Assembly (NCBI RefSeq): GCF_029255185.1 | Contig: NZ_JAPUVO010000101.1 | Location: 1 to 57,663 of the forward strand | DNA from: Propionivibrio sp. | Lineage (GTDB): Bacteria; Pseudomonadota; Gammaproteobacteria; Burkholderiales; Rhodocyclaceae | Direction: 5' to 3' | DNA: 57,663 nt | In this document: piece after piece, positions 5,578-54,195 of the stretch | Numbering within the stretch: the first letter of the stretch is position 1 | How the letters are laid out: each line of letters opens with the position of its first letter | Program-made: the position numbers and the translations under genes | The notes under the pieces: model-generated | The model's input: the letters and a program-made list of their open reading frames with translations, nothing else | Told to the model about the DNA's origin: nothing | Database searches by the model: none

Positions 5578-6354
5578 TTATCGACTCATATGGCGTAGGG
5601 TATTGATACACCTTGATGCGTAAAAAATAGTTATAAATATCAAGTACAGAAGAGCGGTGGTGGTGACCCATCCACCAAACGGAAAAGTAAAAAAAACAAG
5701 TAGCGTATGCCCATTAAAGCCAATGATCATCGCGTATACGTTGCTGAGTATCTGTATCGTAAACGGAAAATTTATTTTCAACAGGCTCACGAGTCCAGAT
5801 TTCTCCTGAGTCTGCCCTTGCCTTAATGGTTGAATTTCTGGCCGACCAGAGGGGATTTTATTTCCAGTTCGTGCTAGGGCAGTGTTTAAATCGTGATCTA
5901 CCAGTTCAGAATAGGTATAACAAAAAATGAAGATACAGCACAACACCCAGTACAGCGTAACGTCGTTTCTTAATCCCACCCCAAAGACAGCCAGGTTGAT
6001 TTTGAAAATATCACTCATATGATCGTATCGGAATGCAGATTTCGATACCTTGTTTGTCATTCGAGCGACTGTGCCATCGCAAAAATCAAATAACACCGAT
6101 CCCGACCAGAATATTGCGAACAGCCTCCAGCCTTCATCAAAAACAAGCGACAAAAATGCAGCGATAGAAAACATGAGCGAGCACGATGTAATCTGGTTTG
6201 GGCTCAGGCGCAGCGTGTTCAGTAACACAGCAAAAGGATAGGCAAACCGGTACATCAGCAACAGCACAACGTTGCCGACTACAGCGCCGTGATTCACGTA
6301 TCTTTCAGAAAATATACGATCGATAATTTGTTTCATGTATCCCGTGGCCACCAT
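5578..6354 (-). CDS. CDP-alcohol phosphotransferase-family membrane protein
   Basis: This 258-residue integral membrane protein has about five to six hydrophobic segments. The family signature D..DG..AR(8)G...D...D is present at residues 90-115, with Asp90, Asp93, Gly94, Ala97, Arg98, Asp111 and Asp115 all in register. The second Gly is replaced by Ala107. Such enzymes move a phospho-alcohol from a CDP carrier to an acceptor hydroxyl and release CMP. Here the gene directly follows a cytidylyltransferase gene of the phosphoramidate type. It may therefore transfer phosphoramidate from a CDP donor to a glycan; this is inference from chemistry and position. A phospholipid or polyol-phosphate transferase is the alternative. 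An alternative start is Met7 (6336). Confidence 0.75.
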   Translation of the reverse strand: MVATGYMKQIIDRIFSERYVNHGAVVGNVVLLLMYRFAYPFAVLLNTLRLSPNQITSCSLMFSIAAFLSLVFDEGWRLFAIFWSGSVLFDFCDGTVARMTNKVSKSAFRYDHMSDIFKINLAVFGVGLRNDVTLYWVLCCIFIFCYTYSELVDHDLNTALARTGNKIPSGRPEIQPLRQGQTQEKSGLVSLLKINFPFTIQILSNVYAMIIGFNGHTLLVFFTFPFGGWVTTTALLYLIFITIFYASRCINTLRHMSR

Positions 6355-6361
6355 CCAATAT

Positions 6362-7141
6362 TCAGATCGACAACTCGATCTGAGCCAGGCGACTTTCGGT
6401 TACTGGGGAGAGTAAATCGTCCACTGTATCCACTTCGACCCATCCGCCATGCACAGGCACGGCATCGAGTCGGTAGCCCAGGTCGATCATCGCTTGCAGC
6501 AAGTCGGTCATATAGGCTTTCTCCGTTTTTTTGCCGCGTAGAACCCCTGCCGACTTGGCGTCATGAAACGTCTTTTTCAGCAGTTGCGTACCCTTGGCCG
6601 AGAACTTCATCAAGCCCATGTATTGCCCCTCAATTTCCGTGAGTGACTTTGGTTTCTGCCCGATCTCGAGGATCCGGCCATCGGCGGCCAGTTTGAGAGT
6701 TTCAGCATCATCCAGCGGATTCTCGTTGCGCGCGCGCCAGTAGGACTCCCAGTCGAGGTCAATGGTTACGGCAATGTCTGCCTTGGAATTCAGAAGCATT
6801 TGTAGAACTTCGCGTGAATAAACAATATCGCCGTAGCAAAGAAGCAGTTCGCCTTCAAGATCATCTTCAGCGCAAAACAGCGTCCACACCATATTGGTTT
6901 CGGCATATTGGGTATTTACCCGTAGCTCGATGCCAGGACGTTCAAGCATTTCAACGCGATACCCGCCTATCACTACGATGGGATGAATGGCTGCCGTTGC
7001 CAGCACGGCCAACTGGCGATCCAATAGGCTAAATCCATCGACTTCAACCAGACACTTTGGCCGATCCAGAGTGTAGGGGCGTAAGCGGGTACCTTCACCG
7101 GCCGCAAGAATAATTGCTTTCAACCCAACTTCATTGTCCAT
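6362..7141 (-). CDS. CTP:phosphoglutamine cytidylyltransferase-like (Cj1416-type)
   Basis: The 259-residue nucleotidyltransferase has the pyrophosphorylase signature AAGEGTRLRPYT at residues 13-24 and the conserved Lys29 in RPKCLVEVDG. LLCYGDIVYS is the metal-binding DxD-like region, and the C-terminal HGGWVEVDTVDDL is the second metal site. The family includes phosphocholine and sugar-phosphate nucleotidyltransferases. In C. jejuni the homologue Cj1416 joins L-glutamine phosphate to CTP in phosphoramidate synthesis. That assignment is made here because the Cj1417-, Cj1415- and Cj1418-like genes are all adjacent. It overlaps the Cj1417-like gene by 11 bases. Without this context, a phosphocholine or polyol-phosphate cytidylyltransferase would be an equal reading. 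Confidence 0.78.
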   Translation of the reverse strand: MDNEVGLKAIILAAGEGTRLRPYTLDRPKCLVEVDGFSLLDRQLAVLATAAIHPIVVIGGYRVEMLERPGIELRVNTQYAETNMVWTLFCAEDDLEGELLLCYGDIVYSREVLQMLLNSKADIAVTIDLDWESYWRARNENPLDDAETLKLAADGRILEIGQKPKSLTEIEGQYMGLMKFSAKGTQLLKKTFHDAKSAGVLRGKKTEKAYMTDLLQAMIDLGYRLDAVPVHGGWVEVDTVDDLLSPVTESRLAQIELSI

Positions 7142-7778
7142 TGAATAACCTTTTTAGCCGCTTGATATCTTGTAGAGAGAATGGCATCTCCCGCTCCGGA
7201 TGCCACATCCATCCTTCCCATGGCAATTGACTATGTTTTATTGCCTCTATTGAATTATCTTCTGCTTGCGCTGCAACCTCGAACCCCTTCGGACAAGACG
7301 CCAGGCCCCAGTTGTGGAAGCTGTTCACATTTGCAGGCCAGTCATCCTTTCGGGCAGGAATCACCAATTGATGCCGGCTTCCGACATGACCGCCCTTTTT
7401 GACAAGATTGGTACCAGCCCATACCGCCATCATTTGCAATCCCCGACAAACTCCAAGAACCGGGATCCACTTTGCTTCAGCCCACGAAAGAAGATAGCGT
7501 TCGGTTGCATCTCGCGTAGGATGCTCACCGATGTCATTGCCCCCGGAGAGAATCAATGCATTGGGTTGTATGGCTCGCACCCAGTCTTCAAGCGTTGGCT
7601 TATCGGCATCTTCGGTGACCGCAAGGGTATTAGGTACGGCAACTGGCAGAAACCCTGAGTGTAGCAGCCACTGGGCAAGCCTCTGATCGAGTGCGTCGCG
7701 GAGTTCCGTACGCCCTGGAACGCTGTCTATGCGCTGGGTAATGCCAACGACAATTTTGCAATTTGGACTAATGATCAA
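7131..7778 (-). CDS. gamma-glutamyl-CDP-amidate hydrolase-like class I amidotransferase (Cj1417-type)
   Basis: The 215-residue protein is a single class I glutamine-amidotransferase domain of the PuuD/peptidase C26 type. The nucleophile is Cys111 (LGVCRGLQ), and the His193/Glu195 pair is in MWHPERE. LSGGNDIG and VNSFHNWG are the oxyanion and substrate loops. Free-standing domains of this type hydrolyse gamma-glutamyl amides. In C. jejuni, Cj1417 releases glutamate from gamma-glutamyl-CDP-amidate to give CDP-phosphoramidate, and the flanking genes point to the same reaction. The start overlaps the preceding methyltransferase stop as ATGA. There is no partner synthetase domain, which fits a hydrolase rather than an ammonia donor. 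Confidence 0.8.
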   Translation of the reverse strand: MIISPNCKIVVGITQRIDSVPGRTELRDALDQRLAQWLLHSGFLPVAVPNTLAVTEDADKPTLEDWVRAIQPNALILSGGNDIGEHPTRDATERYLLSWAEAKWIPVLGVCRGLQMMAVWAGTNLVKKGGHVGSRHQLVIPARKDDWPANVNSFHNWGLASCPKGFEVAAQAEDNSIEAIKHSQLPWEGWMWHPEREMPFSLQDIKRLKRLFNGQ

Positions 7779-8566
7779 ATCTTCCGGGCAATGAGAACAT
7801 AGATATTACAGAACTGGTCCGGAAAATAATGCATCAGGAAATTTTGCAATTTCTGACCAAAGCACGATAGGCGATATCCCTCCATTCTCGCTTTGTTCTC
7901 ATCAAAATTTTTGTGGCCAGAAGAACGAAATATGGCGAATTTATAAAGGATGGGCATGTTCTCGACGGGACCGACAAAATCGATTGTAAAGCCCGATCGT
8001 GTAAACAATTGTTCGTATTCGCTCCGGGTCAGGTTCATTTTGTGGAAAGATCGTCCCTTGCCTTCGCCATTTTTGTTCTTTGCCTTCCTGTTAGCCAACC
8101 AGTCTGTAAGCCGGGTCTGAATGTTGTCGGCACGGAAAGAAGCGCAGACCAAGCCGTCCTTCTCCAGCACTCGATGCGTTTCTCGAATGGCTTTATCCAA
8201 CCCGTGTTCAAGGTTGTGGTACAGGCCAAACGCCAGCACATACTTGAACGACTGGTCGGAAAATCTCAGATTCGTTATATCACCGACCTCGGCCTGTAAG
8301 CTAGGATCGATTTCCTTGAGCTTGCTGATTGCGACATCGATAAAATCGATGCCGATGATGTCATAACCCCGGTCGTGGTAATAGCGCAAAATACGCCCGG
8401 CGCCACAGCCTGCCTCGAGGGTTTTCCCAATTTTGTCGGTTACCGTCATCTGGGCATATTTGAGTGGATACACCTCTGGATTCTCCATTGGGGCATCTGC
8501 TGGAATATCGTCCCAGCGCTTGGTCCAATAATCCTTATTGTTTGCATTTCGATAAGTAATTCTCAT
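7775..8566 (-). CDS. SAM methyltransferase, candidate phosphoramidate O-methyltransferase
   Basis: The 263-residue protein opens with NKDYWTKRWDDIP and has motif I in KTLEAGCGAGRILRYY (about residues 50-65). IIGIDFIDVAI, then LRFSDQSFKYVLAFGLYHNLE and RVLEKDGLVCASFRAD, complete the class I core. A C-terminal extension of about 90 residues, rich in basic and aromatic residues, follows. The gene is co-translated (ATGA) with the amidate hydrolase. Its placement matches the Cj1419/Cj1420 methyltransferases next to the phosphoramidate genes of C. jejuni, which supply the O-methyl group of MeOPN. Two such genes are present in C. jejuni and only one here, so the methylation step may differ. Other acceptors are possible. 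Confidence 0.68.
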   Translation of the reverse strand: MRITYRNANNKDYWTKRWDDIPADAPMENPEVYPLKYAQMTVTDKIGKTLEAGCGAGRILRYYHDRGYDIIGIDFIDVAISKLKEIDPSLQAEVGDITNLRFSDQSFKYVLAFGLYHNLEHGLDKAIRETHRVLEKDGLVCASFRADNIQTRLTDWLANRKAKNKNGEGKGRSFHKMNLTRSEYEQLFTRSGFTIDFVGPVENMPILYKFAIFRSSGHKNFDENKARMEGYRLSCFGQKLQNFLMHYFPDQFCNIYVLIARKI

Positions 8567-8582
8567 CTTATTCTTTACCTTT

Positions 8583-9800
8583 TCAATATTGCTGATTCGT
8601 ATTCGAGTCTAGCCAAGTCCTGATTTCTTCTGCAACTAGGCGGTTCCCATCAATCGATAGATGACCACCGTATTGATCGTTGATGTAGAGTTTTTCGTAT
8701 GCCTCATTCATGAATTTACCGGTAAGATCAAGCACGGGAATATTTTCATCTAACTCACTGAAATACCTTTGATAAGGCGCAAATTTATTTTTATTCAGTT
8801 TAAGATCAAGCAGCTGCGGGATTACGACTACCAATGGCAAATGCCCGCGCCGTCGAGCTTCTCCATTGAATCGCAGTAATATTTCACTTAAAAGTTTTGT
8901 CGCTTTACTGTCACTGTATAGTTTGTAAGCATCGCAGAGATTGTTTTTCATCACCAATGTGAATGGAATATTTTCTGTTCTATGGCTTGAAAGACCTAAA
9001 GCACGAAAGGCTCCGCGAACCGCCACTGCACAAATCAGCATGCCTTGCCGCAGCGGATTGCGCATCAGACTGACGATATAAGGAAAGCGAAACTGCTGAA
9101 AGCGGAATTTTGACTCATAGAAGCCATCGGCCTCGCGTATTGCGGAAAGTTTTTCCTGATAACCGGCAAAATCCTCTGCGCTGCGTACAAGATTTTCCAG
9201 AAGTACTAACTTCCCTTCCGGATCGAGTATGAAGCGTGGTTTGAATGCGAAGGTATTCCCAAATTCTAGGTAATGCTTCCAGTAAGACTGTACCCGGCAA
9301 ATCGTTTCCGGAACAAATCCCATAACAATAACCCGTACCGTATCCGGTAAAGTCATAGCCTCGTAACGCAGTAACGCCTGGTCCACGCCATAATTTCCAA
9401 CGCCAAAATTTAAAACCCCGAAACCTTCCTGCTGCGCAAGCTGAGCCTCCCATGTTTCATCATCTTCTACCTGTCTGCAAAATGCATAGGAATCGCCAAA
9501 AGCAGCGATGACCGGCGGTGATTTTTCAAAGGAATTGATTCGTGATCCTAGCGAATCAATGTGAAAGGTTATCGGACCTTTTTGGCCCTTCTCGATTCCA
9601 CTGGAGTTAGGTCTTCTTACCCAACCAAGATGTGGATCGAAACTTGAATCTATAAATTTTTTTAATGCGTGAGGGTCAAAGCTTGGCGACTCATCTTCCT
9701 CTGTAATTAACCACGGAAAGCATCGTCGCTGCCGATTTACTATTAAAAACAAGCTGACTTCGACACCTACTAAGATAGTAATTAACCCGAGAAAATTCAT
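8583..9800 (-). CDS. membrane-anchored SGNH/GDSL-like hydrolase
   Basis: The 405-residue protein has an N-terminal membrane segment (about residues 3-21). GDSY at residues 102-105 carries the putative nucleophile Ser104. NFGVGNYGVDQALLRYE is the SGNH block II/III region, and YGGHLSIDGNRLVAEEI at the C-terminus contains the catalytic His. The active site is predicted to face the periplasm. The gene lies inside the phosphoramidate module, overlapping the Cj1415-like kinase gene by ATGA. I know of no counterpart in the C. jejuni module. It could be an acyltransferase or esterase acting on the same glycan, or a replacement for a missing transfer step; the sequence does not decide. Confidence 0.65.
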   Translation of the reverse strand: MNFLGLITILVGVEVSLFLIVNRQRRCFPWLITEEDESPSFDPHALKKFIDSSFDPHLGWVRRPNSSGIEKGQKGPITFHIDSLGSRINSFEKSPPVIAAFGDSYAFCRQVEDDETWEAQLAQQEGFGVLNFGVGNYGVDQALLRYEAMTLPDTVRVIVMGFVPETICRVQSYWKHYLEFGNTFAFKPRFILDPEGKLVLLENLVRSAEDFAGYQEKLSAIREADGFYESKFRFQQFRFPYIVSLMRNPLRQGMLICAVAVRGAFRALGLSSHRTENIPFTLVMKNNLCDAYKLYSDSKATKLLSEILLRFNGEARRRGHLPLVVVIPQLLDLKLNKNKFAPYQRYFSELDENIPVLDLTGKFMNEAYEKLYINDQYGGHLSIDGNRLVAEEIRTWLDSNTNQQY

Positions 9801-10324
9801 GTACCCTGGAGTGCCTCTTGCACGACTTTAAGTCCCACAATTCTGTCTACTAATTCTTTGAAATCCAGACGATCAGAATCATTCTCAATTATTAAATCTG
9901 GATTCTCTGGTTCAGGGAATGGGATATCCACACCAACTACGTTCTGAATTTCTCCACGAGCCGCTCTGGCATACAAATTTTTTATGTCTCGTCTTAGCAA
10001 AGTTTGCATCGATGCTTTGATATATACCTCGGAATAATCACGAATATTCTTCCTATTCCAAAGACGCCATTCAGGAAAGATGGAAAGAACAGCAGCAACT
10101 ACGTGTATTCCTTGGTCGGCAAGGAATTTTGATAACACCGAGAGTCGTTCGGCATTTCGCCTCCGTCCTTCGATGGTGTGATCAACATCGTTACCGAAAA
10201 GTGTTCGTATCAAATCACCATCCAATAAAACAACCTTACCATCCAAATTTCGAATTCGCTCAGTCACTTGGGTGGCCAACGTTGTTTTTCCAGTACCCGA
10301 CAGGCCGATAATCCAAATAACCAT
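9797..10324 (-). CDS. APS kinase-like CDP-phosphoramidate kinase (Cj1415-type)
   Basis: The 175-residue P-loop kinase has Walker A GLSGTGKTT at residues 7-15. LLDGDLIRTLFG, RRRNAERL and YARAARGEIQNVVGVDIPFPEPENPD are the APS-kinase blocks. The CysC family phosphorylates the 3'-hydroxyl of adenosine 5'-phosphosulfate. The short C. jejuni homologue Cj1415 instead phosphorylates CDP-phosphoramidate at the 3'-hydroxyl of the ribose. No sulfate-assimilation or sulfotransferase gene lies nearby, while the other three phosphoramidate enzymes are adjacent, so the Cj1415 role is preferred. The gene begins 10 bases after the stop of the glutamine-kinase-like gene. Confidence 0.8.
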   Translation of the reverse strand: MVIWIIGLSGTGKTTLATQVTERIRNLDGKVVLLDGDLIRTLFGNDVDHTIEGRRRNAERLSVLSKFLADQGIHVVAAVLSIFPEWRLWNRKNIRDYSEVYIKASMQTLLRRDIKNLYARAARGEIQNVVGVDIPFPEPENPDLIIENDSDRLDFKELVDRIVGLKVVQEALQGT

Positions 10325-10334
10325 AAAATCCCTG

Positions 10335-12710
10335 TTAATGCAGAGGATTAATCAGTCCGGCTGCACAATCAAGAAGCAACTGATTCGCGCTGATAAACAT
10401 CTCGAAACGCTGCTCACCACAGCCGATCGCTGCAGGTATACCAAATTCTGCACAACGAATGGCCATGTGTGAATTTGCGCCACCGTATTTGGTAATGAGC
10501 CCACCAATTTGTTGAGAAAATATCCAGTCGAAGCCTGGGTCTGCATTTTCAATCAGTACGATTTTACCGGCAAGCGCGGGAAATGTTTGCCCCACGGGCA
10601 GGCCAACGCAGGCGGCGGTAATTTTCTTGTGCGTAATGAAGTTCGGGTGGCTCACCTGAAATGGAACGACATGCACACCCGCCACATCAAACAAAACCTG
10701 GGGAAGGCGTATCGCCACACTCAAGGCATGCCGCTCGACTTCATCTTCAGCGATCAGGCGAAGCCGTTCTTCGATACTGCCCTCACTGCTTCTAGTGACA
10801 ACATCGAGCAAATTACCAATCGAGACGTGCGACATTTCATCCCGGCTCAGACCATTGCGCTCGCCAAAGCACGCGATGAGTTCGAGCATTGAACTGATCG
10901 AGCGGGTGAACACAAATTTGCCATATTCCCGGCCCACTGTGGCAGATTCAACGTAAGCCAATAACTTGTCGGCGTCAAGTTCCGGGAAACCCTCGGCCCA
11001 CAGAAGCCGGTCAATCTCACGTTTCCGGCTTGTATCTAGCTCGAACTTGCTCTGTTCCTGCTCGGGGCGAACTTGCGAATCGTTCATACCCAGATCCGGC
11101 ATCTGATCGTAACGCGGTGACAGGATGTCATAAGTGCCTGGGCGCAGGTGCCCGTATTTAGCCATGAAATCGGTTCGCGACAGTTCGCCAAGTTGCAAGC
11201 GGCGCATATCGCTCACCAGCGAGCTGGCGACCGTTCGAACACTGGACTGCATGAGGTGGATATCTTCCATCGTCAAGATGCCACGCCGGTGGAGTGACAG
11301 AAGAATCGTCCGCGCAATGAAGCCATGACGGGCCAGAATCGAAAAAGGTACGGTCCCCAGACGAATACAGTCGTCGATTATGCCAAACAGTGCCGTGATA
11401 TCCCCGGTGCCTGGCGAAGACTCGACAAGCTGTTTTCCTGCCAGCGCTTCAACACGGGCCAATGCTTTGCGGATGCCGCCCTCGCCGCCATCCGCAAGCA
11501 GCGTACGCGTCTGTTGTCGCAGCGCTTCCTTGAATGCCGACTGCTCTTCCTGATCAAGCGTGGCACCGATCTGCACCTCGATTTTTTCCTCGATGTCGAA
11601 GCTGTAGGTCGTGATCGCTACGTCAAATTCAACCTTGTCATGCAGCTCCGGGTGAGCCTGCAGCCGTTTCACCCACGCGTCGACCAGTTTGTTGCCGATC
11701 TCCGGTGCTAGACCGGCGGGCAGGAAGGAGTGGAAACTCAAGCGGGTGTCGATAAAAGGTTGCCCGGCGAGTGAAACCATCAAAGGCTGTCCATCCGGAA
11801 CAGCGTAGCCCATCGCTTCCCTGGCGATGCGCCAAGCATGATCGGTGATCAAAGTCTTGTAGAGCGAAAAAGCCAAGGCACGAGGCGCCCGCCCTATCAT
11901 CTCGGCGGGGTTCCAGTCGGGCATCTGCCCAAGTACCGTGGTGCTTCCGTAGACGCCGGCCATGGGTTGCAGCCGTTCCCCGACAAATGCCTGAATCCCC
12001 TGTAATGCCGCATCTATGCGTTTGGCAACGGCCCGGTTCCAGTTGGGCTGAGTGGTGATCGCCCGTACTTGTAGCAGATAGGGGACAAAGTCTTCGCCAA
12101 TGGCGAACTCCACGTCCAGAAACTGGCTACCCATGACTCTTTCCAGTTCCTGTACCGCATGTATCAATCGTTGAAAGCGCTCCGAGCGAAGAGACTGTGA
12201 CGCCCCACGGTGAATAAAGAGTGTACGGTTTGCATATTCGCCACCGCCTGAGGTCACCGTATTGGTCAGCCCGGATACGTCGTCATAGTTGATGACGTAA
12301 TAGGGGGCGCCGGTATTCAGATCATGCGTAAATACAACGCCGCTCATGCTGGTGTTGAGCACCATTTCCTGAACAATGACTTCATCATTACCCCTGTGCG
12401 GCCTCTTGCGCTCGTAGCTGGCAATCACATCGGAGATTGCCCTGCGCAGCGCACCCGCGTCGGCCGAAGGGACGTCAAGAACGGAGTCGTACTCCCCGGC
12501 GCATGCATTATTTGCCCCGTCTTCATCAGTCGCAGACGAGCGGATCACTACGGAACGGCCGGAAAACGTGTTTTGTACCTGACGAATCACTTCGTCAGGA
12601 CAGGCTGTGAAAAAGGCCACGTCGAATATCTGTAGTTCAGGCACCCTGAACAAGGATACCTTGGACTCGACTCGCCTGAGCGTTTGGGCTTTTGAAGTAG
12701 ATTCAAACAT
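10335..12710 (-). CDS. L-glutamine kinase-like PEP-synthase-family protein (Cj1418-type)
   Basis: The 791-residue protein has an N-terminal PPDK-type ATP-grasp domain; VVIRSSATDEDGANNACAGE starts near residue 54 and IVQEMV...GVVFTHD follows. A long central, largely helical domain occupies about residues 240-680. The C-terminal phosphohistidine domain has GGANSHMAI with His748 as the predicted phospho-carrier. The order ATP-grasp, substrate domain, His domain is that of rifampin phosphotransferase and of Cj1418. Cj1418 phosphorylates the side-chain amide of L-glutamine, the first step of phosphoramidate synthesis, and its length is very close to this protein. No PEP carboxylase-like (beta/alpha)8 domain is present, so it is not a PEP synthase or PPDK. 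It is the first gene of the module on this strand. Confidence 0.82.
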   Translation of the reverse strand: MFESTSKAQTLRRVESKVSLFRVPELQIFDVAFFTACPDEVIRQVQNTFSGRSVVIRSSATDEDGANNACAGEYDSVLDVPSADAGALRRAISDVIASYERKRPHRGNDEVIVQEMVLNTSMSGVVFTHDLNTGAPYYVINYDDVSGLTNTVTSGGGEYANRTLFIHRGASQSLRSERFQRLIHAVQELERVMGSQFLDVEFAIGEDFVPYLLQVRAITTQPNWNRAVAKRIDAALQGIQAFVGERLQPMAGVYGSTTVLGQMPDWNPAEMIGRAPRALAFSLYKTLITDHAWRIAREAMGYAVPDGQPLMVSLAGQPFIDTRLSFHSFLPAGLAPEIGNKLVDAWVKRLQAHPELHDKVEFDVAITTYSFDIEEKIEVQIGATLDQEEQSAFKEALRQQTRTLLADGGEGGIRKALARVEALAGKQLVESSPGTGDITALFGIIDDCIRLGTVPFSILARHGFIARTILLSLHRRGILTMEDIHLMQSSVRTVASSLVSDMRRLQLGELSRTDFMAKYGHLRPGTYDILSPRYDQMPDLGMNDSQVRPEQEQSKFELDTSRKREIDRLLWAEGFPELDADKLLAYVESATVGREYGKFVFTRSISSMLELIACFGERNGLSRDEMSHVSIGNLLDVVTRSSEGSIEERLRLIAEDEVERHALSVAIRLPQVLFDVAGVHVVPFQVSHPNFITHKKITAACVGLPVGQTFPALAGKIVLIENADPGFDWIFSQQIGGLITKYGGANSHMAIRCAEFGIPAAIGCGEQRFEMFISANQLLLDCAAGLINPLH

Positions 12711-12744: not shown

Positions 12745-13956
12745 TCAAGCTTGTCTCAGATAGGTTAGATTGCCCACATCAATAACAGGATCGTTGAAAA
12801 TAGGATTCCCAAGAATTGCAAGAAGCTTTGAATGTTCGGGATGGGACGGCAGATGTACCGCCTTCTGCTCATATTCTGTTTGCATGAAAGTGCCCCAATT
12901 GTACATGTAGGTGAAGCCAATCTTGTCCACCCCTATCCTTTTCCCCAGCTCGATCAACGGTATCATTTCCTGGTAGTTGTCAACCTGCACAATCATGTTC
13001 AGGTTAAGGCTGATACTAAAATCCTTCTTATCCGGCATGTTGGCAAGATATTCAATATTACTTATCAATTTCTCGAACTTTCCTCCCAATCTCAATTTTT
13101 CATAGGTATGAGCGGTAGCGCCATCGATGGAAATTCCGATGTATGAAATCTTGCTTTTCACGGAACGTGGCAAACCGCTCCACGTCCTGTCATGCAACGC
13201 TATTCCATTGGTCTGGATGCCAATTTTCAGGTTTGGATATTGATCCCAGTTCGTTTTCAACAAAATAGTGTGGTAAACCTTGCTTGAAAAAGGGTCACCA
13301 TCGCCAGAAATATGAATCATTTCCAATTGCGACCCAATTTCCCTTATGATCGAATTGAACTTGGCCAGTTGAAAACCTACCTCATCCTTACCGATTTTTC
13401 TCATGCCGGTGCGGCAGGAGGGGCATTCCAGATTACACGTATAATCCATGCCCAAACTGAGTGTCTTGACGTCGGAGTTCATGTTTATTTCTGAATTCCT
13501 AATGATGTTCTTCAATCGTTCATCTTCAACTTCAGTCTTTTTTACAAGATTTGCGTTGTAATACTGCATCGACCTGCATCGCGTCTTGTCGCAATACTTG
13601 AAGCTTCCGTTGAGCATGGACTTGCGTACCTGTTTTGCAAAATATGAATTCCAGGCTTTTCTGAACGAGCTTTTATATGCATTTCCGAAATTTTTTGGCA
13701 GGTAACAGCAGGCGCTGATTTCGCCATTGTTGGTTATTTCAGCATATTCAAAGGGTAACTTACAAACATAGTCCTGGAATTCGGTTCCATAATCAAATTT
13801 TTTATAATTTTTATAGAATCTGATTGAATGATAGACGCCGCGAAAGCGCTGGATGAACGCCGTTTTTTTTAGTCCTCTGATGAATTCTGAGTCTTTTAGC
13901 CGATTTACGAATCCTTTGTGCACCGGCACTTGCACCAACATAATTGTCTTTTTCAT
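12745..13956 (-). CDS. radical SAM protein with N-terminal cysteine cluster
   Basis: The 403-residue protein has a radical SAM motif C-x3-C-x2-C at Cys174, Cys178 and Cys181 (DYTCNLECPSC). It is followed by ISGDGDPF and by GIQTNGIAL and IGISIDGATAHTYEKLR strands of the half-barrel. Upstream of the core, NGEISACCYLPKNFGNAYKSSF...AWNS...CDKTRC (about residues 78-127) resembles a SPASM-type auxiliary-cluster region. SPASM is normally C-terminal, so the order looks swapped. Related SPASM-like proteins act on peptides or sugars. The gene sits between the phosphoramidate module and the acetylation pair. Its substrate is unknown. Confidence 0.72.
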   Translation of the reverse strand: MKKTIMLVQVPVHKGFVNRLKDSEFIRGLKKTAFIQRFRGVYHSIRFYKNYKKFDYGTEFQDYVCKLPFEYAEITNNGEISACCYLPKNFGNAYKSSFRKAWNSYFAKQVRKSMLNGSFKYCDKTRCRSMQYYNANLVKKTEVEDERLKNIIRNSEINMNSDVKTLSLGMDYTCNLECPSCRTGMRKIGKDEVGFQLAKFNSIIREIGSQLEMIHISGDGDPFSSKVYHTILLKTNWDQYPNLKIGIQTNGIALHDRTWSGLPRSVKSKISYIGISIDGATAHTYEKLRLGGKFEKLISNIEYLANMPDKKDFSISLNLNMIVQVDNYQEMIPLIELGKRIGVDKIGFTYMYNWGTFMQTEYEQKAVHLPSHPEHSKLLAILGNPIFNDPVIDVGNLTYLRQA

Positions 13957-14026
13957 AACTCCACCACTTCTTTAATCAGACTACCATTTGGCTGCTTTTT
14001 CAGTCGAAAGTTCAAAGCCGCCTTCA

Positions 14027-14878
14027 TCAGCAATCATTAGCAAAATAGAATTTCAGCTTCCTTATTACGCCATTCGCGTCATTAACATTCAGATGCAAGC
14101 CATCAGCGGGGTTTATTTCAATACCATCAGCCAACTCTTCGAAACCAATAAACTTGTTATCTGGAAAAGCGCTTCGGAAGGCTGTTCTGACCTGTATGAC
14201 TTGGTTTGTATTTTCCAGTTCCGGATGGACGGGCATTTCAAAGAACACGACCCTGACCCCGTTATTTTCCAGATTATTCACTTTGGCTCTGAATTCGGCG
14301 ATTTTTGTCGTCAAGAGAATAGTTGGCAAAGGCAGGTTGAAACTTTCACTCTGTAATGCGAGCTCTTTCTTGCGAGCTTCTTCCGTATCCGGTTTAACAT
14401 TACTGTTATTTTCTTCTTGAGGCTTGTCTTTTAAAATATGATAAAAACTGACAAGCATATTGCCGGCAAGGCTAATCGGCGATGTATAAGTGAATTCCGG
14501 AAAGTTTTTTGCAAGAAATCCGGATGCCTCATTAATCAGAATTTTATTGCTATCCCGTCCGGGGAAATTAACTTCAACAAAAACTACGCGCGGCTTGTGC
14601 AATGACTCTGTGATGATGTCGAGCCCGGTCAATGCCGATTCGCCAATTAATCCAAGGTTATAGACGCACTTATCGGCCTCTCTGAATTCAAGGGTCACCG
14701 TAAGCGAACTTCCCGTAAATACAACCGGTGCCTTGGTGTTCTGAAGATACATTGCAACCGTACTGCGGTTTTGTTTCCAATACCTTTGTAGTGGTGTGGC
14801 AGGTTCCATCTGGCGATATCCAAGAAGAGCTCCATAGGCTCCAATGAGGATTGACGCGACTGCCAGTGAAATCTTCAA
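14027..14878 (-). CDS. periplasmic SGNH-fold partner of MBOAT (AlgJ/DltD-like)
   Basis: The 283-residue protein has an N-terminal hydrophobic helix (about residues 3-20) as a membrane anchor or uncleaved signal. VVFTGSSLT (Ser57 or Ser58) is a putative SGNH nucleophile block, and DGLHLN near the C-terminus supplies the Asp-x-x-His pair. MBOAT acyl exporters work with such periplasmic proteins (AlgJ/AlgX in alginate, DltD in teichoic acid). The gene follows the MBOAT gene with a gap of two bases. It is therefore likely the second half of an O-acetylation system for this glycan. It is unrelated in length to the other SGNH protein of the locus (8583-9800). Confidence 0.65.
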   Translation of the reverse strand: MKISLAVASILIGAYGALLGYRQMEPATPLQRYWKQNRSTVAMYLQNTKAPVVFTGSSLTVTLEFREADKCVYNLGLIGESALTGLDIITESLHKPRVVFVEVNFPGRDSNKILINEASGFLAKNFPEFTYTSPISLAGNMLVSFYHILKDKPQEENNSNVKPDTEEARKKELALQSESFNLPLPTILLTTKIAEFRAKVNNLENNGVRVVFFEMPVHPELENTNQVIQVRTAFRSAFPDNKFIGFEELADGIEINPADGLHLNVNDANGVIRKLKFYFANDC

Positions 14879-14880
14879 AA

Positions 14881-16296
14881 TCAGAATTGAAAATAAATAA
14901 ACGGGGTTGAGGGCCCAGAGTTGGTAACTATTAGGAACAGCATTATTCCATAGAGGACACTCTGCAACTGAGGCGAAATTTTCCTGTTGTACGCACCAAA
15001 AAAATGATACGCAAAAACAATTGAGCTGAACGTTACAACCATGAACACTCTCAATAGTTCGCTACCACTGACCCCATTGTGCAACAGCGAGCCAAGATAC
15101 GCCCAGGCTTGTGAAAAATCCTGAAGCTTGAAGAATAACCATCCAAAACTTACAAAATTGAATACCAGGAAGACACGAAAGCCTCTTAGAAATGGGTGAT
15201 CGCTCGTCATGAACCAGCTTTTTTGCCAGGGCCTTTCCATGACCAGGCCGACACCGTGCCACAATCCCCAGAAAGCAAAACTCCAGGCCGCACCATGCCA
15301 CAAGCCTCCCAGAAACATCACCACAATCAAGTTGGCATAGGTACGTAGTACCCCGTATTTATTGCCGCCCAACGGAATATACAGATAGTCACGCAACCAG
15401 CTTGAGAGCGAAATATGCCAGCGCCGCCAGAATTCGGAAATCGAACTCGACAGATACGGAAAGTTAAAATTGTCAGGGAGACGGTACCCAAATAGTTTCG
15501 CGATTCCGATTGCGATCAGCGAGTACCCGGCAAAATCGGCAAATATTTGTGCAGAATATCCGTAAAGCAGCAGCAACAGTTCAAGCGAAGATTTCCGCTG
15601 GAAATGCGGATAGGCCATCCATGCCGTTTGTTCGCCAAGGTTATCGGCAACGACAGTCTTTAGAAAATAGCCGAGAACCAGGATGCGGAAACACGCCGCG
15701 AAATCAATTTCTTGAAGATACTTATGGCCGACTTGTGGAAAAAAGTCCTTCGCCTTGATGATCGGCCCGGCAATCAACTGGGGGAAAAAAACGAGATATA
15801 GCAGAGTGTTGGCAAGGTGCTTCATTACGCCATCCATGCCGGAATTCTCGATAGCAATTGCGCTATTTTTCCGATAGACATCAACCATCAAACTGATGCC
15901 ATGAAACGTGTAGAAGGAAATCCCGATGGGGAGAGGTGCGAGAACAAGCCAGTCTCCTAGTGAATGAGATCCCTTGGCTGCGATATCCGAAAAATCATGG
16001 ATCCATAAAACCTTATACTTGAAAAAACCCAGCAAGCCCAGGTTCATCAACACGCCGACAGTTGCGGAAAACTTCGCCTGCAGTGGGGTGTTGGCCGTAA
16101 GCACACCGTAACTTGACAAGCTGGTAATCAACCAGGCACAAAGAAATACCCCGAGCAGAGGTGGAGACTGCCATGCATAGAAGAAGAGTGAGGCAACTAC
16201 CAGGACAAGCAACTGCAATGTTGACGTGCGGACGAGATAGTAGCTTGGGAATACGGCTGCGATGAATAGAAAAAATGCGCTGTCCGAATAATTCAT
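14881..16296 (-). CDS. MBOAT-family membrane O-acyltransferase (AlgI-like)
   Basis: The 471-residue protein has about ten hydrophobic segments. LAPLPIGISFYTFHGISLMVDVYR and the later SEFWRRWHISLSSWLRDYLYIPLGGNK are the AlgI/DltB blocks. LGGLWHGAAWSFAFWGLWHG carries the catalytic His region. Such proteins move acetyl groups from cytoplasmic acetyl-CoA across the inner membrane onto glycans, together with a periplasmic SGNH partner, here the next gene. A methionine-start gene of usual AlgI length points to an intact protein. Confidence 0.88.
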   Translation of the reverse strand: MNYSDSAFFLFIAAVFPSYYLVRTSTLQLLVLVVASLFFYAWQSPPLLGVFLCAWLITSLSSYGVLTANTPLQAKFSATVGVLMNLGLLGFFKYKVLWIHDFSDIAAKGSHSLGDWLVLAPLPIGISFYTFHGISLMVDVYRKNSAIAIENSGMDGVMKHLANTLLYLVFFPQLIAGPIIKAKDFFPQVGHKYLQEIDFAACFRILVLGYFLKTVVADNLGEQTAWMAYPHFQRKSSLELLLLLYGYSAQIFADFAGYSLIAIGIAKLFGYRLPDNFNFPYLSSSISEFWRRWHISLSSWLRDYLYIPLGGNKYGVLRTYANLIVVMFLGGLWHGAAWSFAFWGLWHGVGLVMERPWQKSWFMTSDHPFLRGFRVFLVFNFVSFGWLFFKLQDFSQAWAYLGSLLHNGVSGSELLRVFMVVTFSSIVFAYHFFGAYNRKISPQLQSVLYGIMLFLIVTNSGPSTPFIYFQF

Positions 16297-16360: not shown

Positions 16361-18181
16361 TCAGGAAGTTATTATTTTGTTCATCATGCTTAATGCCGAT
16401 TTTGCGCATAGAATTGCTTTTGTTAAAAACCGATTTTGTAAATTAGGTGGAGTCGCAATACCCTCTGGTAACAGGGACAAAAAATAATCCGTAGTTTTGC
16501 TTTCTGGTGCTAAAGAGTAATCAGTTAGTCTCTCAACTGGATGGCGAACGGCCTCACTAAACCACCAATCTTCCACATTGTCATAAATTGATGATAATTT
16601 GGCTATGGTAGACTGTGCTGAAGCATGAATGACACCACAATCGATCAGGTCATCAAATATCTCCTTCAATTCACCCGATAACGGGATGCAACTAATGTCG
16701 CAAACCAATATAAAAGGAACCTTCATTAATAATATTTCAGAAAACCCGGAGCTCATGTGGTCAATAATTACAATTTTTGATTTAATGATACTTTCGTTGA
16801 AACTGCCCCGATCAATTTTAATGTTAAGTTTTTCGAGTTCCAACAGGTGCTCTACATCCCAGAACCCATTTTCTTGTCTTGGCCTAAACAAGAAATGTTC
16901 AATCAATGCAGAAGGAAGTAATGTGATTATATCCGCGATAGTTTTTAACTCTCTGATAAAAGTTGAGTTGCTCGCACTGTATTCGTTGATTTCGACCCCA
17001 TAGATAAATTTTGTTCGGGTAATGAAAAGAATGCTCTTCTTTTTCGGGTCAAACTGGTACGGAATAACATCCCTACAGGCAAAACCTCCTTGGATGAGGT
17101 TCTTGATATTTCCTTTCCATCCAACTGACAGATAGATATCAGACGCTTCGTAGTCCATAAACTGCATGTAATTCTTGTAGTAGCAAGTGCCAGAACTATG
17201 CTCGTAGCAAATAAATTTTCTGTTGTCTTCCTTGGCCAAAGCGACGTAAATGGCGTCCTGGACGTTGCTTATCCAGCATTCTGAAACTATGTGAGTGAAT
17301 TTTCTGCACTTGATATCATTTTTAAAAACACTGTAGTACCCCATAAAATATTCCAAGAAATCCATGGGTAAACAATAATACAGCGACTGCATAAAATAAC
17401 TTTCAAAGCTGCGCTCGATAGTGCTTCGTGTTATAAATTTTCTTTTTGTGAAATCAGCATCAAGAGGAATTCTTTTGATTCTTGGCAATGAAAAACTGTT
17501 TACTCTCCCTTGTGACCGTTCTTCCAAAACTTTCCGGTTATTTTTTGACAAGACTACATTTAGAAGTGCAATCTGGGGTTCAACTTGCATCAAGGCAATT
17601 TTACGTCTTAACCCAAAGAGCATCGAACCATCATCTGTCGAACTGATACAGGATGTGTATTTCAGGCGTACGATCTCAAAATCTTTGGTCTTGTATAAAT
17701 GGTAGTACTGACTGACCAATTGTTGAACGCCAAAATCACCAGCAAAGCAAAATATGTAATCGACATGATTTTTTGGGATGTTAAAATCACTTTTGTTTAA
17801 TATTTTTATGCCAGTCGCGTCAATATCCAATGCGCTGAGATAGACATATTTCTCGTAGACAATGGAAATGTGCCGGAACAGCCAATAACCAAAAACCACT
17901 TCCCAAAATGATACCGGTAGTTCAAGATTGTGAATTGTATTTAACCTCCTAGCCAACTCAGGAAGAATTTTGTAATAGAAATTTTTGCAAACGTCATGGG
18001 CCTCTTGGATTTCCTCTTTGGTTGAAAAAAGGTCAGGATTAGTTGGTACTAAGTCATTTTCAATATATTTAAGAGTGCTAGTGTGTTTAGCCCCCTGCCA
18101 TAAATACAAAGAGTCTGAATACTCATCGGACCAGAATTCATTTAATGCGGTTGCCCTGATATTGATATTTGATATTTTCAT
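16361..18181 (-). CDS. LIC12162-type putative surface-glycan transferase
   Basis: The 606-residue protein starts with NIRATALNEFWSD, followed by LYLWQGAK. This agrees with the opening of the LIC12162/LA_1612 family, large putative transferases of O-antigen loci (ATTALEEFW...LFLGEWC). YEHSSGTCYYKN and the late KSKIVIIDHMSSGFSEILLMKVPFILV look like GT-B donor-side motifs seen in CDP-glycerol or Kdo-type transferases. There is no membrane segment. The gene is clearly AT-richer than gmd or the housekeeping genes, a sign of foreign origin for this sub-block. It starts directly after the stop of the GNAT gene (TGAATG). Confidence 0.6.
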   Translation of the reverse strand: MKISNINIRATALNEFWSDEYSDSLYLWQGAKHTSTLKYIENDLVPTNPDLFSTKEEIQEAHDVCKNFYYKILPELARRLNTIHNLELPVSFWEVVFGYWLFRHISIVYEKYVYLSALDIDATGIKILNKSDFNIPKNHVDYIFCFAGDFGVQQLVSQYYHLYKTKDFEIVRLKYTSCISSTDDGSMLFGLRRKIALMQVEPQIALLNVVLSKNNRKVLEERSQGRVNSFSLPRIKRIPLDADFTKRKFITRSTIERSFESYFMQSLYYCLPMDFLEYFMGYYSVFKNDIKCRKFTHIVSECWISNVQDAIYVALAKEDNRKFICYEHSSGTCYYKNYMQFMDYEASDIYLSVGWKGNIKNLIQGGFACRDVIPYQFDPKKKSILFITRTKFIYGVEINEYSASNSTFIRELKTIADIITLLPSALIEHFLFRPRQENGFWDVEHLLELEKLNIKIDRGSFNESIIKSKIVIIDHMSSGFSEILLMKVPFILVCDISCIPLSGELKEIFDDLIDCGVIHASAQSTIAKLSSIYDNVEDWWFSEAVRHPVERLTDYSLAPESKTTDYFLSLLPEGIATPPNLQNRFLTKAILCAKSALSMMNKIITS

Positions 18182-42229: not shown

Positions 42230-43477
42230 CTACGGGCGAAACCCACCGCCTCCATCATCCTCGTTCCCGACTTCCAGCGCCGTCAGTCGTGCAACGTCGT
42301 CGAGAACTGCATCCAGGCCCGTATACAGGGCATTCACGACTTCGTGGGCGTGGAATACCCGATGCCGGCGTTGCGTATTCGCCGGCCGGAGGATGTCGAG
42401 ATCCACCAGTTCCGCGATTGCGTCATTGGCGGCGGGGAACGTGACATCAAGACGCTCGGCGACAGCATTCACCGTGACGACGGGCTGCCCGAGCAGCAAG
42501 TTTGTTACGCTCCAGATCGCCGCATGCCGGCGCTTCCCCTTTTCGGCAAGGATGCCTTGCCACCGCCCCTGAATGTCTCGCAGGTTCGCGAAAACCTGCA
42601 CGGTATGGCGACACGAGGCGACGACGCTCTCCAAGAACAGGCGCATCCAAGGTGTCCAGTTCAAGCGCGTCTGCGCTTGCCAGAGTGTGTCGTAGTACTC
42701 CTGTTGCCGGACCTTCAAGAAGGTTGCCAGGTGGATCGGTGGCGCGCCCGCTGCCTTGAGCATCAGCGGCAGCAACAGACGACCGGTCCGCCCATTGCCA
42801 TCAAGGAACGGGTGGATAGCTTCGAATTGAGCATGCGCGATCCCCGCGCGCATCAGGATCGACACTTCAGCAACACCGTCCGGCTCGTACTGCAAGAGCT
42901 CGACCATGCCTCCCATGAGTCGTGGCACCTCGGCCGCTGGCGGCGGGATGTAGCGCGCGGTCTCCAACCGCATCCCGATATAGTTCTGAATCGTCCGCCA
43001 GCGGCCAGGATCGACTCGGTCCTGGCCTTCGAGCAGCTTCGCGTGCAAGCTCTGGATCAAGTCAAGATCCAGCGCCGCTTGCCCCCGGCGATCGACCTCC
43101 CGACTTCCGAACATAAACGCGCGAACATACCCCAAGGTCTCGTCGGCGTCCTGGTCTGGGCGCGCGTCTTCGGTACCGGCCTCGATCTCATGGATCAAGA
43201 GTCCATCGAACCCGGTATGCGTCCCCTCGATCTGACTGCTGTCGACAGCCTCCCGCCGATTCAACATGTGAAAGACCAGATCCGCGAAGGCTTTGTTGCG
43301 GTCAATAACTTCGCCAAGCGCCTCCAGTTCCCGGCGCGCGAGCACGAACAACCCGTGGCTGGCCGGCACATCGATGGACGTCGGTACCGGCGGCGGAACC
43401 ACGGCATAACATCCCGATCGATTCGGAATCGGGATGCAGGATGCCTGCAGGCTGGGGTGAAGGTCGGATTTGCGCAT
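42230..43477 (-). CDS. Fic-domain protein (probable AMP transferase)
   Basis: The 415-residue protein has the complete Fic motif HPFLDGNGRTGR at residues 222-233 (catalytic His222). The inhibitory-helix motif SSQIEG at 80-85, N-terminal to the core, supplies the Glu that keeps class II Fic proteins off. A C-terminal winged-helix-like region (VVTVNAVAERLDVTFPAANDAIAELVDLDIL) follows. This layout, Fic with a C-terminal HTH, is common for chromosomal Fic proteins that may modify their own or nearby targets. It stands alone with no antitoxin gene beside it, as expected for a class II protein. The target is unknown. Confidence 0.88.
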   Translation of the reverse strand: MRKSDLHPSLQASCIPIPNRSGCYAVVPPPVPTSIDVPASHGLFVLARRELEALGEVIDRNKAFADLVFHMLNRREAVDSSQIEGTHTGFDGLLIHEIEAGTEDARPDQDADETLGYVRAFMFGSREVDRRGQAALDLDLIQSLHAKLLEGQDRVDPGRWRTIQNYIGMRLETARYIPPPAAEVPRLMGGMVELLQYEPDGVAEVSILMRAGIAHAQFEAIHPFLDGNGRTGRLLLPLMLKAAGAPPIHLATFLKVRQQEYYDTLWQAQTRLNWTPWMRLFLESVVASCRHTVQVFANLRDIQGRWQGILAEKGKRRHAAIWSVTNLLLGQPVVTVNAVAERLDVTFPAANDAIAELVDLDILRPANTQRRHRVFHAHEVVNALYTGLDAVLDDVARLTALEVGNEDDGGGGFRP

Positions 43478-50703: not shown

Positions 50704-52074
50704 TTACCCCGCCTGCGCTTCAAGCAAGCGCGGCCCCAACAGGCCATTGAGCGCTGACAGATCGTCCTCGCTTAACACGCCGGCCGCAGCTTTGAGTTTG
50801 AGCCCCTGAAACAGGGTCTCGTAACGCGCCTTGCTCAGATCACGCTGCGTCGTATAGAGCTGCTGTTCCGCGTTCAGGACATCGATGTTAATGCGGATGC
50901 CGAGCGTATAACCAACCTGATTCCCCTTGACCGCGCTTTCTCCCGAGAGCACCGCCGAATCGAGCGCTTCGATCTGGGCCAGGCCGTTGGTGATTCCCGC
51001 GTAGGCCTGCCGGGCGTCGCTGGCTGCCTGCCGCCTTGCCGCTTCGAGATCGGCGCGGGTTTTATGGCGGTTGGATACAGCTTCGGCGACCCGTGCATTC
51101 GTCGCGCCGCCCGAAAAGATCGGGATGTTCAACTGCACACCAAGCGCCTTCGACCTGGCCTGGGTTGAGTAATCCACCGGGGTTGTCAGGCTGCCCGAAG
51201 CATAATTGCCACCGTAAGACGCCGTAAAGTCCACGGTCGGCAGATGTTCCGAACGGAACTTTTTCACTGCCGATTCCGCCGCCATCAGCGCGGCCTGTTG
51301 TGCGCGCACCAGTGGATTATTGTCTTTGGCCTGGCTGATCCAGGCCTCGGGATCGTCTGGCGCAGGCCTTGGCGCAACGACCGATGGACGCAATACCGCA
51401 AGCCGGGTGGGTAACTGGCCCACCACCTTCTCAAGTTCTGAACGCTTGGTCTCCAGCTCGTTCAGGGCGGCGACCCGTTGCGCGCGGGCGAGGTCGATGC
51501 GTGACTGGGCTTCATGCACATCGGTGACGGTTGTTGTCCCGGCCTGAAAACCCCGTTTGGCAATTGCCAGTTGTTCGCCCATGGCCCTAAGTTGGGCATC
51601 GGCCACGGCGATGCCATCTTCGGCCACCACCACATCGAAATAAACCCGCGCCACGCGCAGGACAAGCTCCTGTTCGGCCTGGGCAAACTGCGCCGTGGCC
51701 TGCTCGACAATCGATTCGGATTCACTGTAAGCGTAGAGATTCTGGATTCGGATCACCGGCTGGGTCAGTTGCAGCGTCCAGTTCCAGGTATTGACATCGC
51801 GTTGCAGGGCCGGGGCAGTGCTGAAGGCCGTGTTGGCCTGTGTGCGGCCATCGTTGCCAGTGGCCGCCACAACCGGCAAAAGCCCGGCGCGCGCCAGCGG
51901 GATTTTTTGTTGAGCCGCCGCAAGCGTGTAACGCGCCGCCTCGAAGCCCGGATCGTTAAGCTGCGCCAGTCGATAGACATCGAGCAAATCGGCAGCGCAG
52001 GCCAATCCCAACGGCATGATCGCCGACAGACCGGCACAAACTGTCCGGTACATCAGACGCTTCAGGCGCTTCAT
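50704..52074 (-). CDS. TolC-family outer membrane channel of type I secretion
   Basis: The 456-residue protein has a signal peptide (LMYRTVCAGLSAIMPLGLACAA, cut near residue 28). DLLDVYRLAQLNDPGFEAARY and the repeated helical/strand halves of TolC follow, for example ALLRYE-type strands, VQLNIPIFSGGATNARVAEA, and GYTLGIRINIDVLNAEQQLYTTQRDL. It forms the outer membrane exit duct for the RTX exporter. It is the last gene of the operon and overlaps the adaptor gene by ATGA. Confidence 0.92.
   Translation of the reverse strand: MKRLKRLMYRTVCAGLSAIMPLGLACAADLLDVYRLAQLNDPGFEAARYTLAAAQQKIPLARAGLLPVVAATGNDGRTQANTAFSTAPALQRDVNTWNWTLQLTQPVIRIQNLYAYSESESIVEQATAQFAQAEQELVLRVARVYFDVVVAEDGIAVADAQLRAMGEQLAIAKRGFQAGTTTVTDVHEAQSRIDLARAQRVAALNELETKRSELEKVVGQLPTRLAVLRPSVVAPRPAPDDPEAWISQAKDNNPLVRAQQAALMAAESAVKKFRSEHLPTVDFTASYGGNYASGSLTTPVDYSTQARSKALGVQLNIPIFSGGATNARVAEAVSNRHKTRADLEAARRQAASDARQAYAGITNGLAQIEALDSAVLSGESAVKGNQVGYTLGIRINIDVLNAEQQLYTTQRDLSKARYETLFQGLKLKAAAGVLSEDDLSALNGLLGPRLLEAQAG
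50709..50732. repeat. 24-base hairpin repeat, copy 2
   Basis: This copy lies in the last codons of the tolC-type gene and differs by one base from the copy at 49930-49953. The two copies bracket the toxin-antitoxin pair in direct orientation. Confidence 0.5.
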
Positions 52075-53920: not shown

Positions 53921-54025
53921 TTCATTTCTCCAAAATTGGCGCTGTGCCAAAGGCGGCACAGCGCGTCGGCGATGACCGCCAATGATAACTCTGCAAAACT
54001 CAGTTATCCTTAAAAACCCAGTTGT

Positions 54026-54182: not shown

Positions 54183-54195
54183 AAGGATTTTAGAA

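What the first reader, a model, noticed from the sequence alone, without database searches (positions are those of the whole stretch)
5578..12710. CDP-phosphoramidate (MeOPN-like) module in a betaproteobacterial polysaccharide operon
Four genes encode the set of folds that makes CDP-phosphoramidate in C. jejuni. They are a 791-residue ATP-grasp/phosphohistidine kinase without PEP-binding barrel (Cj1418-like, His748), a cytidylyltransferase (Cj1416-like), a free class I amidotransferase domain with Cys111/His193/Glu195 (Cj1417-like) and a short APS-kinase homologue (Cj1415-like). A methyltransferase lies among them. Each alone would be annotated blandly (PEP synthase, NTP transferase, peptidase C26, adenylylsulfate kinase); together they point to a P-N bond decoration of a surface glycan. 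The gene order and the added membrane CDP transferase and SGNH genes differ from Campylobacter.
Basis: partly seen in the sequence, partly recalled or inferred. Interest (0 to 1): 0.93.

Follow-up and report, generated by a model that had tools for sequence, protein, structure and literature searches.

The report
Phosphoramidate-making gene set for surface sugars
A row of neighbouring genes in this bacterium looks able to make the rare phosphorus-nitrogen group known from the capsule of Campylobacter, and relatives of the set turn up in many other bacteria and a few archaea with exchangeable finishing genes, which hints that this odd surface chemistry is more widespread and more varied than usually described.

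Summary
5578-12710 (- strand) is one tight gene row: glutamine-kinase-like K (P0001), APS-kinase-like P (P0002), SGNH-like S (P0003), methyltransferase M (P0004), amidotransferase A (P0005), cytidylyltransferase N (P0006), CDP-alcohol phosphotransferase C (P0007).

The reading is largely supported. K passes NCBIfam NF004508. A is matched best by gamma-glutamyl-CDP-amidate hydrolase but misses that model's cut-off. P lies outside the clade of 29 reference APS kinases. In 398 Pseudomonadota genomes, all 14 with an A-like gene are among the 15 with K. Near K in 82 fetched loci: A in 70, N in 70, P in 65. K-A and K-N fusions exist.

K-A-N form a core, while P evolves with alternative finishing cassettes (S, a formyltransferase-like pair, or a UbiE-type methyltransferase). 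C is a plausible, unproven transferase.

Limits: no Campylobacter sequence could be fetched, nothing was assayed, the O-methyl group ("MeOPN") is not established, and N's specificity rests on linkage. Verdict: new variant of a known pathway.

The parts
10335..12710 (-). K: glutamine-kinase-like protein, 791 aa, phosphohistidine His748
   Evidence: NF004508 830 bits, cut-off 501; PPDK_N and PEP-utilizers; His748 83 of 83
9797..10324 (-). P: APS-kinase-family protein, proposed CDP-phosphoramidate 3'-kinase
   Evidence: NF004041 171 bits, cut-off 127; apsK TIGR00455 126 bits, cut-off 138.7 not met; outside the APS kinase clade
8583..9800 (-). S: SGNH-like protein with one N-terminal hydrophobic segment; part of the second-stage cassette, role unknown
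   Evidence: no Pfam or NCBIfam match; conserved GDS, GVGN, GHxS; hydrophobic segment 3-21
7775..8566 (-). M: SAM-dependent methyltransferase
   Evidence: Methyltransf_11 57.8 bits; close relatives in 11 of 83 K loci, window included
7131..7778 (-). A: class I amidotransferase fold, proposed gamma-glutamyl-CDP-amidate hydrolase
   Evidence: best NCBIfam NF045546 97 bits, cut-off 250 not met; Cys111, His193, Glu195
6362..7141 (-). N: NTP transferase, proposed phosphoglutamine cytidylyltransferase
   Evidence: NTP_transferase; closest solved sequence LicC 1jyk; near K in 70 of 82 loci
5578..6354 (-). C: membrane CDP-alcohol phosphotransferase, candidate transferase of the P-N group
   Evidence: PF01066 46.1 bits, cut-off 22; motif in 3 aligned members; directly after N in L024 and L026

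Best explanation
The operon encodes a CDP-phosphoramidate pathway that feeds a phosphoramidate decoration of a surface glycan built by the surrounding genes. Inferred by homology to the characterised C. [quoted passage not shown] N couples the product to CTP, giving gamma-glutamyl-CDP-amidate; A hydrolyses off glutamate, leaving CDP-NH2; P phosphorylates its ribose 3'-OH. Shown here: the families, their conserved catalytic residues and their tight linkage. Inferred here: P belongs to a second-stage cassette with its partner (S in this window), which finishes the group, and a CDP-dependent transferase, most simply the membrane protein C, moves the P-N group onto a sugar hydroxyl. Step by step: CDP-phosphoramidate pathway 0.85; 3'-phosphorylation by P 0.7; C as transferase 0.4; O-methylation of the P-N group by M 0.3.
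For: K over its curated cut-off. A and K hits coincide in 14 of 14 A-positive genomes out of 398, with 15 K-positive. Within 6 kb of K in 82 loci: A 70, N 70, P 65; in the 45 with 6 kb flanks on both sides 41, 42, 38. K-A fusion in L093 and L103; K with an N-type domain in L071, L085, L090, L094. Catalytic residues kept. P0002 outside the APS kinase clade. No LicD or choline kinase in the genome. Polysaccharide surroundings.
Against: A misses the equivalog cut-off. N has no dedicated model, and its nearest solved relative is a phosphocholine enzyme. Not every K has partners: of 46 well-flanked loci, window included, 4 lack A, 3 lack N and 7 lack P, and the K on the plasmid in L105 has no A, N or P match in 20 kb. 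Of 17 K-positive genomes, 6 have no match over the NF004041 cut-off, and those of G060, G389 and G411 fall with the APS kinases. No Cj sequence was aligned and nothing was assayed.
Confidence: 0.8

Rival explanations
1. Unrelated enzymes side by side: a phosphocholine-type cytidylyltransferase with a CDP-choline-like phosphotransferase (N, C), a PuuD-like hydrolase (A), a sulfate-activating APS kinase (P) and a PEP-synthase-like K of another role.
For: N's closest solved sequence is LicC; P is in the APS_kinase Pfam family; database labels found in a relative read 'phosphocholine cytidylyltransferase family protein' and 'gamma-glutamyl-gamma-aminobutyrate hydrolase family protein'.
Against: K, A and N travel together across phyla and are fused in places; no LicD or choline kinase; P outside the APS kinase clade.
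Confidence: 0.06
2. The pathway is real, but its product is a small P-N metabolite or a substituted amidate made from a substrate other than glutamine, not a glycan decoration.
For: No transferase is shared by all loci; some K genes lie outside polysaccharide surroundings (L105).
Against: The window module is inside a polysaccharide region; A matches the gamma-glutamyl-type hydrolase model best, as expected for a glutamine-derived intermediate.
Confidence: 0.1
3. C is not the phosphoramidate transferase but places another CDP-activated alcohol or lipid; the P-N group is moved by a glycosyltransferase-like protein of the cluster.
For: C is absent from 80 of 83 loci. Other families lie near K instead: a Glyphos_transf-like cluster in 12 loci and sulfotransferase-like clusters in 13 loci. 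The Campylobacter transferases Cj1421/Cj1422 could not be compared.
Against: C follows N directly and in the same direction in all 3 loci that have it and is otherwise hardly found: only the own genome among 369 class genomes and among 119 relatives, and no plasmid.
Confidence: 0.5

Closest known systems
C. jejuni CDP-phosphoramidate pathway Cj1415-Cj1418 (O-methyl phosphoramidate of the capsule)
   Same: Same four enzyme types, as far as family models show: K with NF004508, A nearest to NF045546, P with NF004041, an NTP transferase N, beside glycan genes. That Cj1418 and Cj1415 fall in NF004508 and NF004041 is recalled, not tested.
   Different: Gene order K-P-S-M-A-N-C; S and C are added; no identified counterpart of the transferases Cj1421/Cj1422 (not testable here); P paired with S, not with a UbiE-type methyltransferase.
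Phosphoramidate groups without O-methyl on LPS of Xanthomonas campestris and Shewanella
   Same: P-N group on a surface glycan outside Campylobacter (PMC3907429 passages; PMC8042644 passage)
   Different: Known as chemistry; no genes for them in the passages seen. Whether they use this module was not tested.
CDP-alcohol phosphotransferases (PF01066)
   Same: C has the motif and hydrophobic segments; the known chemistry moves a phospho-group from a CDP donor to a hydroxyl
   Different: Proposed donor is CDP-phosphoramidate or its 3'-phosphate; one Gly of the (recalled) motif is Ala

Membership tests
Glutamine kinase type K (NF004508/PRK05849) | Curated score cut-off | tested here: met
   829.8 bits, cut-off 501
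Glutamine kinase type K (NF004508/PRK05849) | Phosphohistidine in the mobile domain, no PEP-binding barrel | tested here: met
   His748 83 of 83; only PPDK_N and PEP-utilizers matched
Glutamine kinase type K (NF004508/PRK05849) | ATP-dependent phosphorylation of glutamine amide N | not testable with these tools
   needs an assay
gamma-Glutamyl-CDP-amidate hydrolase (NF045546) | Equivalog score cut-off | tested here: not met
   97.2 bits of 250; 0 of 398 Pseudomonadota genomes reach it. So A is filed as 'nearest to', not as a strict equivalog
gamma-Glutamyl-CDP-amidate hydrolase (NF045546) | Cys-His-Glu triad | tested here: met
   Cys111 48 of 49 (one X), His193 49 of 49, Glu195 49 of 49
CDP-phosphoramidate kinase type P (NF004041/PRK05541) | Subfamily score cut-off | tested here: met
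   171.4 bits, cut-off 127; the model itself is named adenylyl-sulfate kinase, its link to Cj1415 is recalled
Adenylyl-sulfate kinase (TIGR00455) | Equivalog cut-off and place in the APS kinase clade | tested here: not met
   126 bits of 138.7; 29 of 29 references form a clade with 2 of 66 K-near homologues, P0002 outside, support 0.89
Phosphoglutamine cytidylyltransferase (Cj1416 type) | Specific relation to Cj1416 rather than LicC | tested here: inconclusive
   no dedicated model matched; nearest solved sequence LicC; linkage to K and A strong
Campylobacter MeOPN locus | Alignment with Cj1415-Cj1418, Cj1421 and Cj1422 | not tested
   no Campylobacter locus among the 80 kept; none in the plasmid or phage hits for K
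CDP-alcohol phosphotransferase (PF01066) | Pfam cut-off and D-x2-D-G-x2-A-R-x8-G-x3-D-x3-D motif (motif recalled) | tested here: met
   46.1 bits, cut-off 22; motif present with the third Gly position read as Ala

The most novel reading that the evidence does not exclude
Activated phosphoramidate is a widespread, two-stage, modular surface chemistry of bacteria and archaea. A conserved core (K-A-N) makes CDP-NH2. The 3'-kinase P belongs to an exchangeable second cassette whose alternatives (SGNH-like S, a formyltransferase-like pair, or a UbiE-type methyltransferase) finish it as chemically different P-N groups, for example N-formyl phosphoramidate; unrelated CDP- or PAPS-type transferase families, among them the CDP-alcohol phosphotransferase C, then attach them. 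Most of these products have not been seen.
Probability: 0.35. Interest if true: 0.85.

Novelty: new variant of a known kind. Interest (0 to 1): 0.66.

Why it matters
P-N bonds are rare in biology, and in the passages I read this modification is tied to Campylobacter: a 2019 review says it has so far been identified only there (PMC6429109, passages), and a 2022 review calls the glutamine kinase 'C. jejuni-specific' (PMC9561416, passages). Phosphoramidate on Xanthomonas and Shewanella LPS is on record, without genes in the passages seen. The survey gives gene handles in many other organisms, some of them named isolates such as Methyloversatilis universalis and Pseudomonas chlororaphis, and a testable split between a core and exchangeable finishing cassettes. 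In C. jejuni the group is recognised by phages (PMC9561416, passages), so a wider presence bears on phage-host biology. It would also correct bland labels such as PEP-utilizing enzyme, adenylyl-sulfate kinase and PuuD-like hydrolase.

Tried and rejected
Viral carriage: one scan of viral contigs with a 32-row kinase alignment gave 20 pattern matches, none a relative. The phage collection gave 1 of 50,697 records, an unverified faecal scaffold. Plasmids: 14 of 72,556 records carry a K relative at E up to 1e-30.

APS kinase reading of P: rejected for P0002 by the tree, with the caveat that the 29 references were themselves picked with the apsK model, and that at least one of 50 P rows scores better with apsK (best E 1.5e-62) than the best row does with NF004041 (4e-55). 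Phosphocholine reading of N: made unlikely, not excluded.

The 606-aa protein at 16361-18181 was first suspected, from its size, to be the P-N transferase. It passes the LIC12162 family model (229.8 bits, cut-off 225) and lies within 6 kb of K in 3 of 82 loci, so no claim is made. A residue signature separating module P from APS kinases: only 2 columns passed an 80/80% filter.

Literature: seven searches of an open-licence library; in the listings shown (capped) I saw no paper on this module outside Campylobacter. The 2017 discovery paper is not held, so earlier notice there cannot be excluded.
Full report
OBSERVATION. In transcription order I call them K, P, S, M, A, N, C. The window is one whole contig, C101, of an unnamed 3.26 Mb genome. 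Its left part is a polysaccharide region: G+C is 48% in 1-35009 and 59% in 35165-57663, with the module at 49%. That region holds a NeuB, a CTP_transf_3, DegT aminotransferases, a Polysacc_synt_2 protein and other sugar genes, which I read as a nonulosonic-acid-type pathway, and an ABC transporter.

WHAT THE FOUR ENZYMES ARE. K scores 830 bits to NCBIfam NF004508 (cut-off 501), and its only Pfam domains are PPDK_N and the mobile PEP-utilizers domain. In 83 aligned members the residues G743, G744, S747, His748, M749 and R752, and DWNP, HDKxEF and G-L-R motifs in the long middle region, are kept in 83 of 83. A is matched best by gamma-glutamyl-CDP-amidate hydrolase (NF045546, 97 bits; next GMP synthase 52, PuuD-type 38), but the cut-off of 250 is not met. 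Of 49 A rows, 49 match NF045546 at 1e-6, more than for any other family and with the best top E-value (7.8e-39). The triad is intact. P passes NF004041 (171, cut-off 127) and misses the apsK cut-off (126 of 138.7). In a FastTree with 29 reference APS kinases, all 29 lie in one clade (support 0.89) with 2 of 66 P homologues found near K; P0002 is outside.

CONTROLS ON P. Of 17 K-positive genomes searched with NF004041, 11 have a match over cut-off. It lies beside K in 7 (G000, G030, G111, G170, G237, G317, G427), beside A with K on another contig in 2 (G099, G159), 20 kb from K in G226, and on another contig in G115. Nine of the 11 also have a weaker match elsewhere. In 3 of the 17 (G060, G389, G411) the only match falls with the APS kinases, which speaks against P being indispensable. 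The own genome has one full APS-kinase-family gene, P0002, plus one weak partial match. N has no dedicated model and its nearest solved sequence is LicC, so its assignment rests on linkage; the genome shows no LicD and no choline kinase.

LINKAGE. The same 398 Pseudomonadota genomes were searched with two external models. For NF045546, 14 genomes reach 82 bits or more and the next genome 61. For NF004508, 15 are over cut-off and include all 14; the fifteenth is G211 (Fisher P 6.6e-25). In 2 of the 14 (G099, G159) the two matches are on different contigs. Within 6 kb of K, A is found in 70, N in 70, P in 65; in the 45 with 6 kb on both sides in 41, 42 and 38. These counts take any match at 1e-5, so a few are weak. 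Fusions: K-A in L093 and L103; K with an N-type domain in L071, L085, L090, L094. Carriers by record title include Beta-, Gamma- and Alphaproteobacteria, Pelagibacter, Desulfovibrio, Acidobacteria, Verrucomicrobia, Omnitrophota, Cohnella and three archaea (L071, L090, L098). Many are metagenome bins whose names may be wrong; the nearest full set, L023, is labelled Chlorobiaceae. Among 59 relatives, own genome included, 3 have K over cut-off, so the module is accessory.

MODULARITY (new here). ORFs near K were grouped by BLAST. One group, in 33 loci, is a small protein of no Pfam family plus a formyltransferase-like protein (PF00551), for example directly after P in L024, L045 and L054, where the window has S. 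S (7 loci, counted to 10 kb; in L055 it is part of a larger protein on the other strand, in L071 and L090 it is 6 kb or more away) and this pair never occur together: 0 of 46 well-flanked loci with 7 and 22 carriers (hypergeometric P 0.006). A third group, a UbiE-type methyltransferase (16 loci), overlaps neither in those 46. L028 differs from the window in just this way: K, M, A and N are 76-84% identical while P is 48% and the pair stands in place of S. Conversely L086 shares P, S and M at 82%, 73% and 85% but K, A and N at only 38%, 51% and 44%. On trees of 48 labelled loci the cassette label changes 5 times on the P tree against 9 (K), 10 (A) and 8 (N); shuffled means are about 17. With unlabelled loci included (59) the counts are 8 against 15, 16 and 13. 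So P appears to evolve with the finishing cassette and K-A-N form a separate core. The labels come from one survey and one clustering, and I computed no confidence interval on the difference.

TRANSFER. C carries the CDP-alcohol phosphotransferase motif with one Gly read as Ala (motif recalled). Its chemistry, moving the phospho-group of a CDP compound to a hydroxyl, fits CDP-phosphoramidate. It follows N directly in the window, L024 and L026 and was otherwise found only in the own genome among 369 class genomes and 119 relatives, and in no plasmid. The two other members were found inside K loci, so ascertainment is biased, and two K-positive relatives (G012, G030) lack it. Elsewhere a Glyphos_transf-like group (12 loci) or sulfotransferase-like groups (13 loci in all) lie near K. 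Their usual donors, CDP-polyols and 3'-phospho-nucleotides, resemble CDP-phosphoramidate and its 3'-phosphate; this is suggestive only.

LITERATURE. [quoted passage not shown] A 2014 survey looked for cj1416-cj1418 among Campylobacter taxa and mentions phosphoramidate without O-methyl in Xanthomonas campestris and Shewanella LPS (PMC3907429, passages). Seven searches showed no description of the module outside Campylobacter in their listings; the discovery paper is not held.

VERDICT. A genuine CDP-phosphoramidate-type operon and a new variant of a known pathway. Limits: no assay, no alignment with the Cj proteins, the strict model cut-off for A not met, N's specificity untested, and the final group and the transferase inferred.

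Noticed in passing
1-35009 against 35165-57663: The polysaccharide region is 48% G+C and the rest of the contig 59% (another contig stretch, L002, also 59%), as expected of an acquired glycan island.
   Followed up: partly
12745-16296: Directly upstream of the module lie a radical SAM/SPASM protein and an MBOAT (DltB-like) acyltransferase gene with a small unassigned protein (14027-14878) between them.
   Followed up: no
L103 619-3684; L093 1973-5188: Kinase and amidotransferase are fused in one ORF in a human faecal scaffold and in a Candidatus Adiutrix bin.
   Followed up: partly
L071, L085, L090, L094 (kinase ORFs): The kinase ORF carries an extra N-type domain; two of these loci are haloarchaeal, and none of the four has P within 7 kb.
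   Followed up: no
L105 8968-11310: A Cupriavidus taiwanensis conjugative plasmid carries a K relative near nifK with no A, N or P match in 20 kb: an orphan kinase.
   Followed up: no
L104 5472-14009: On a Vibrio alfacsensis plasmid K-A-N lies between cysN/cysD and a gene labelled CDP-glycerol glycerophosphotransferase family.
   Followed up: no
50704-57501: An outer membrane efflux protein (OEP) and a 1101-aa protein with RTX calcium-binding repeats lie near the right end of the window.
   Followed up: no
42230-43477: A Fic-domain protein with Fic_N lies between housekeeping genes (transhydrogenase, B12-dependent methionine synthase).
   Followed up: no
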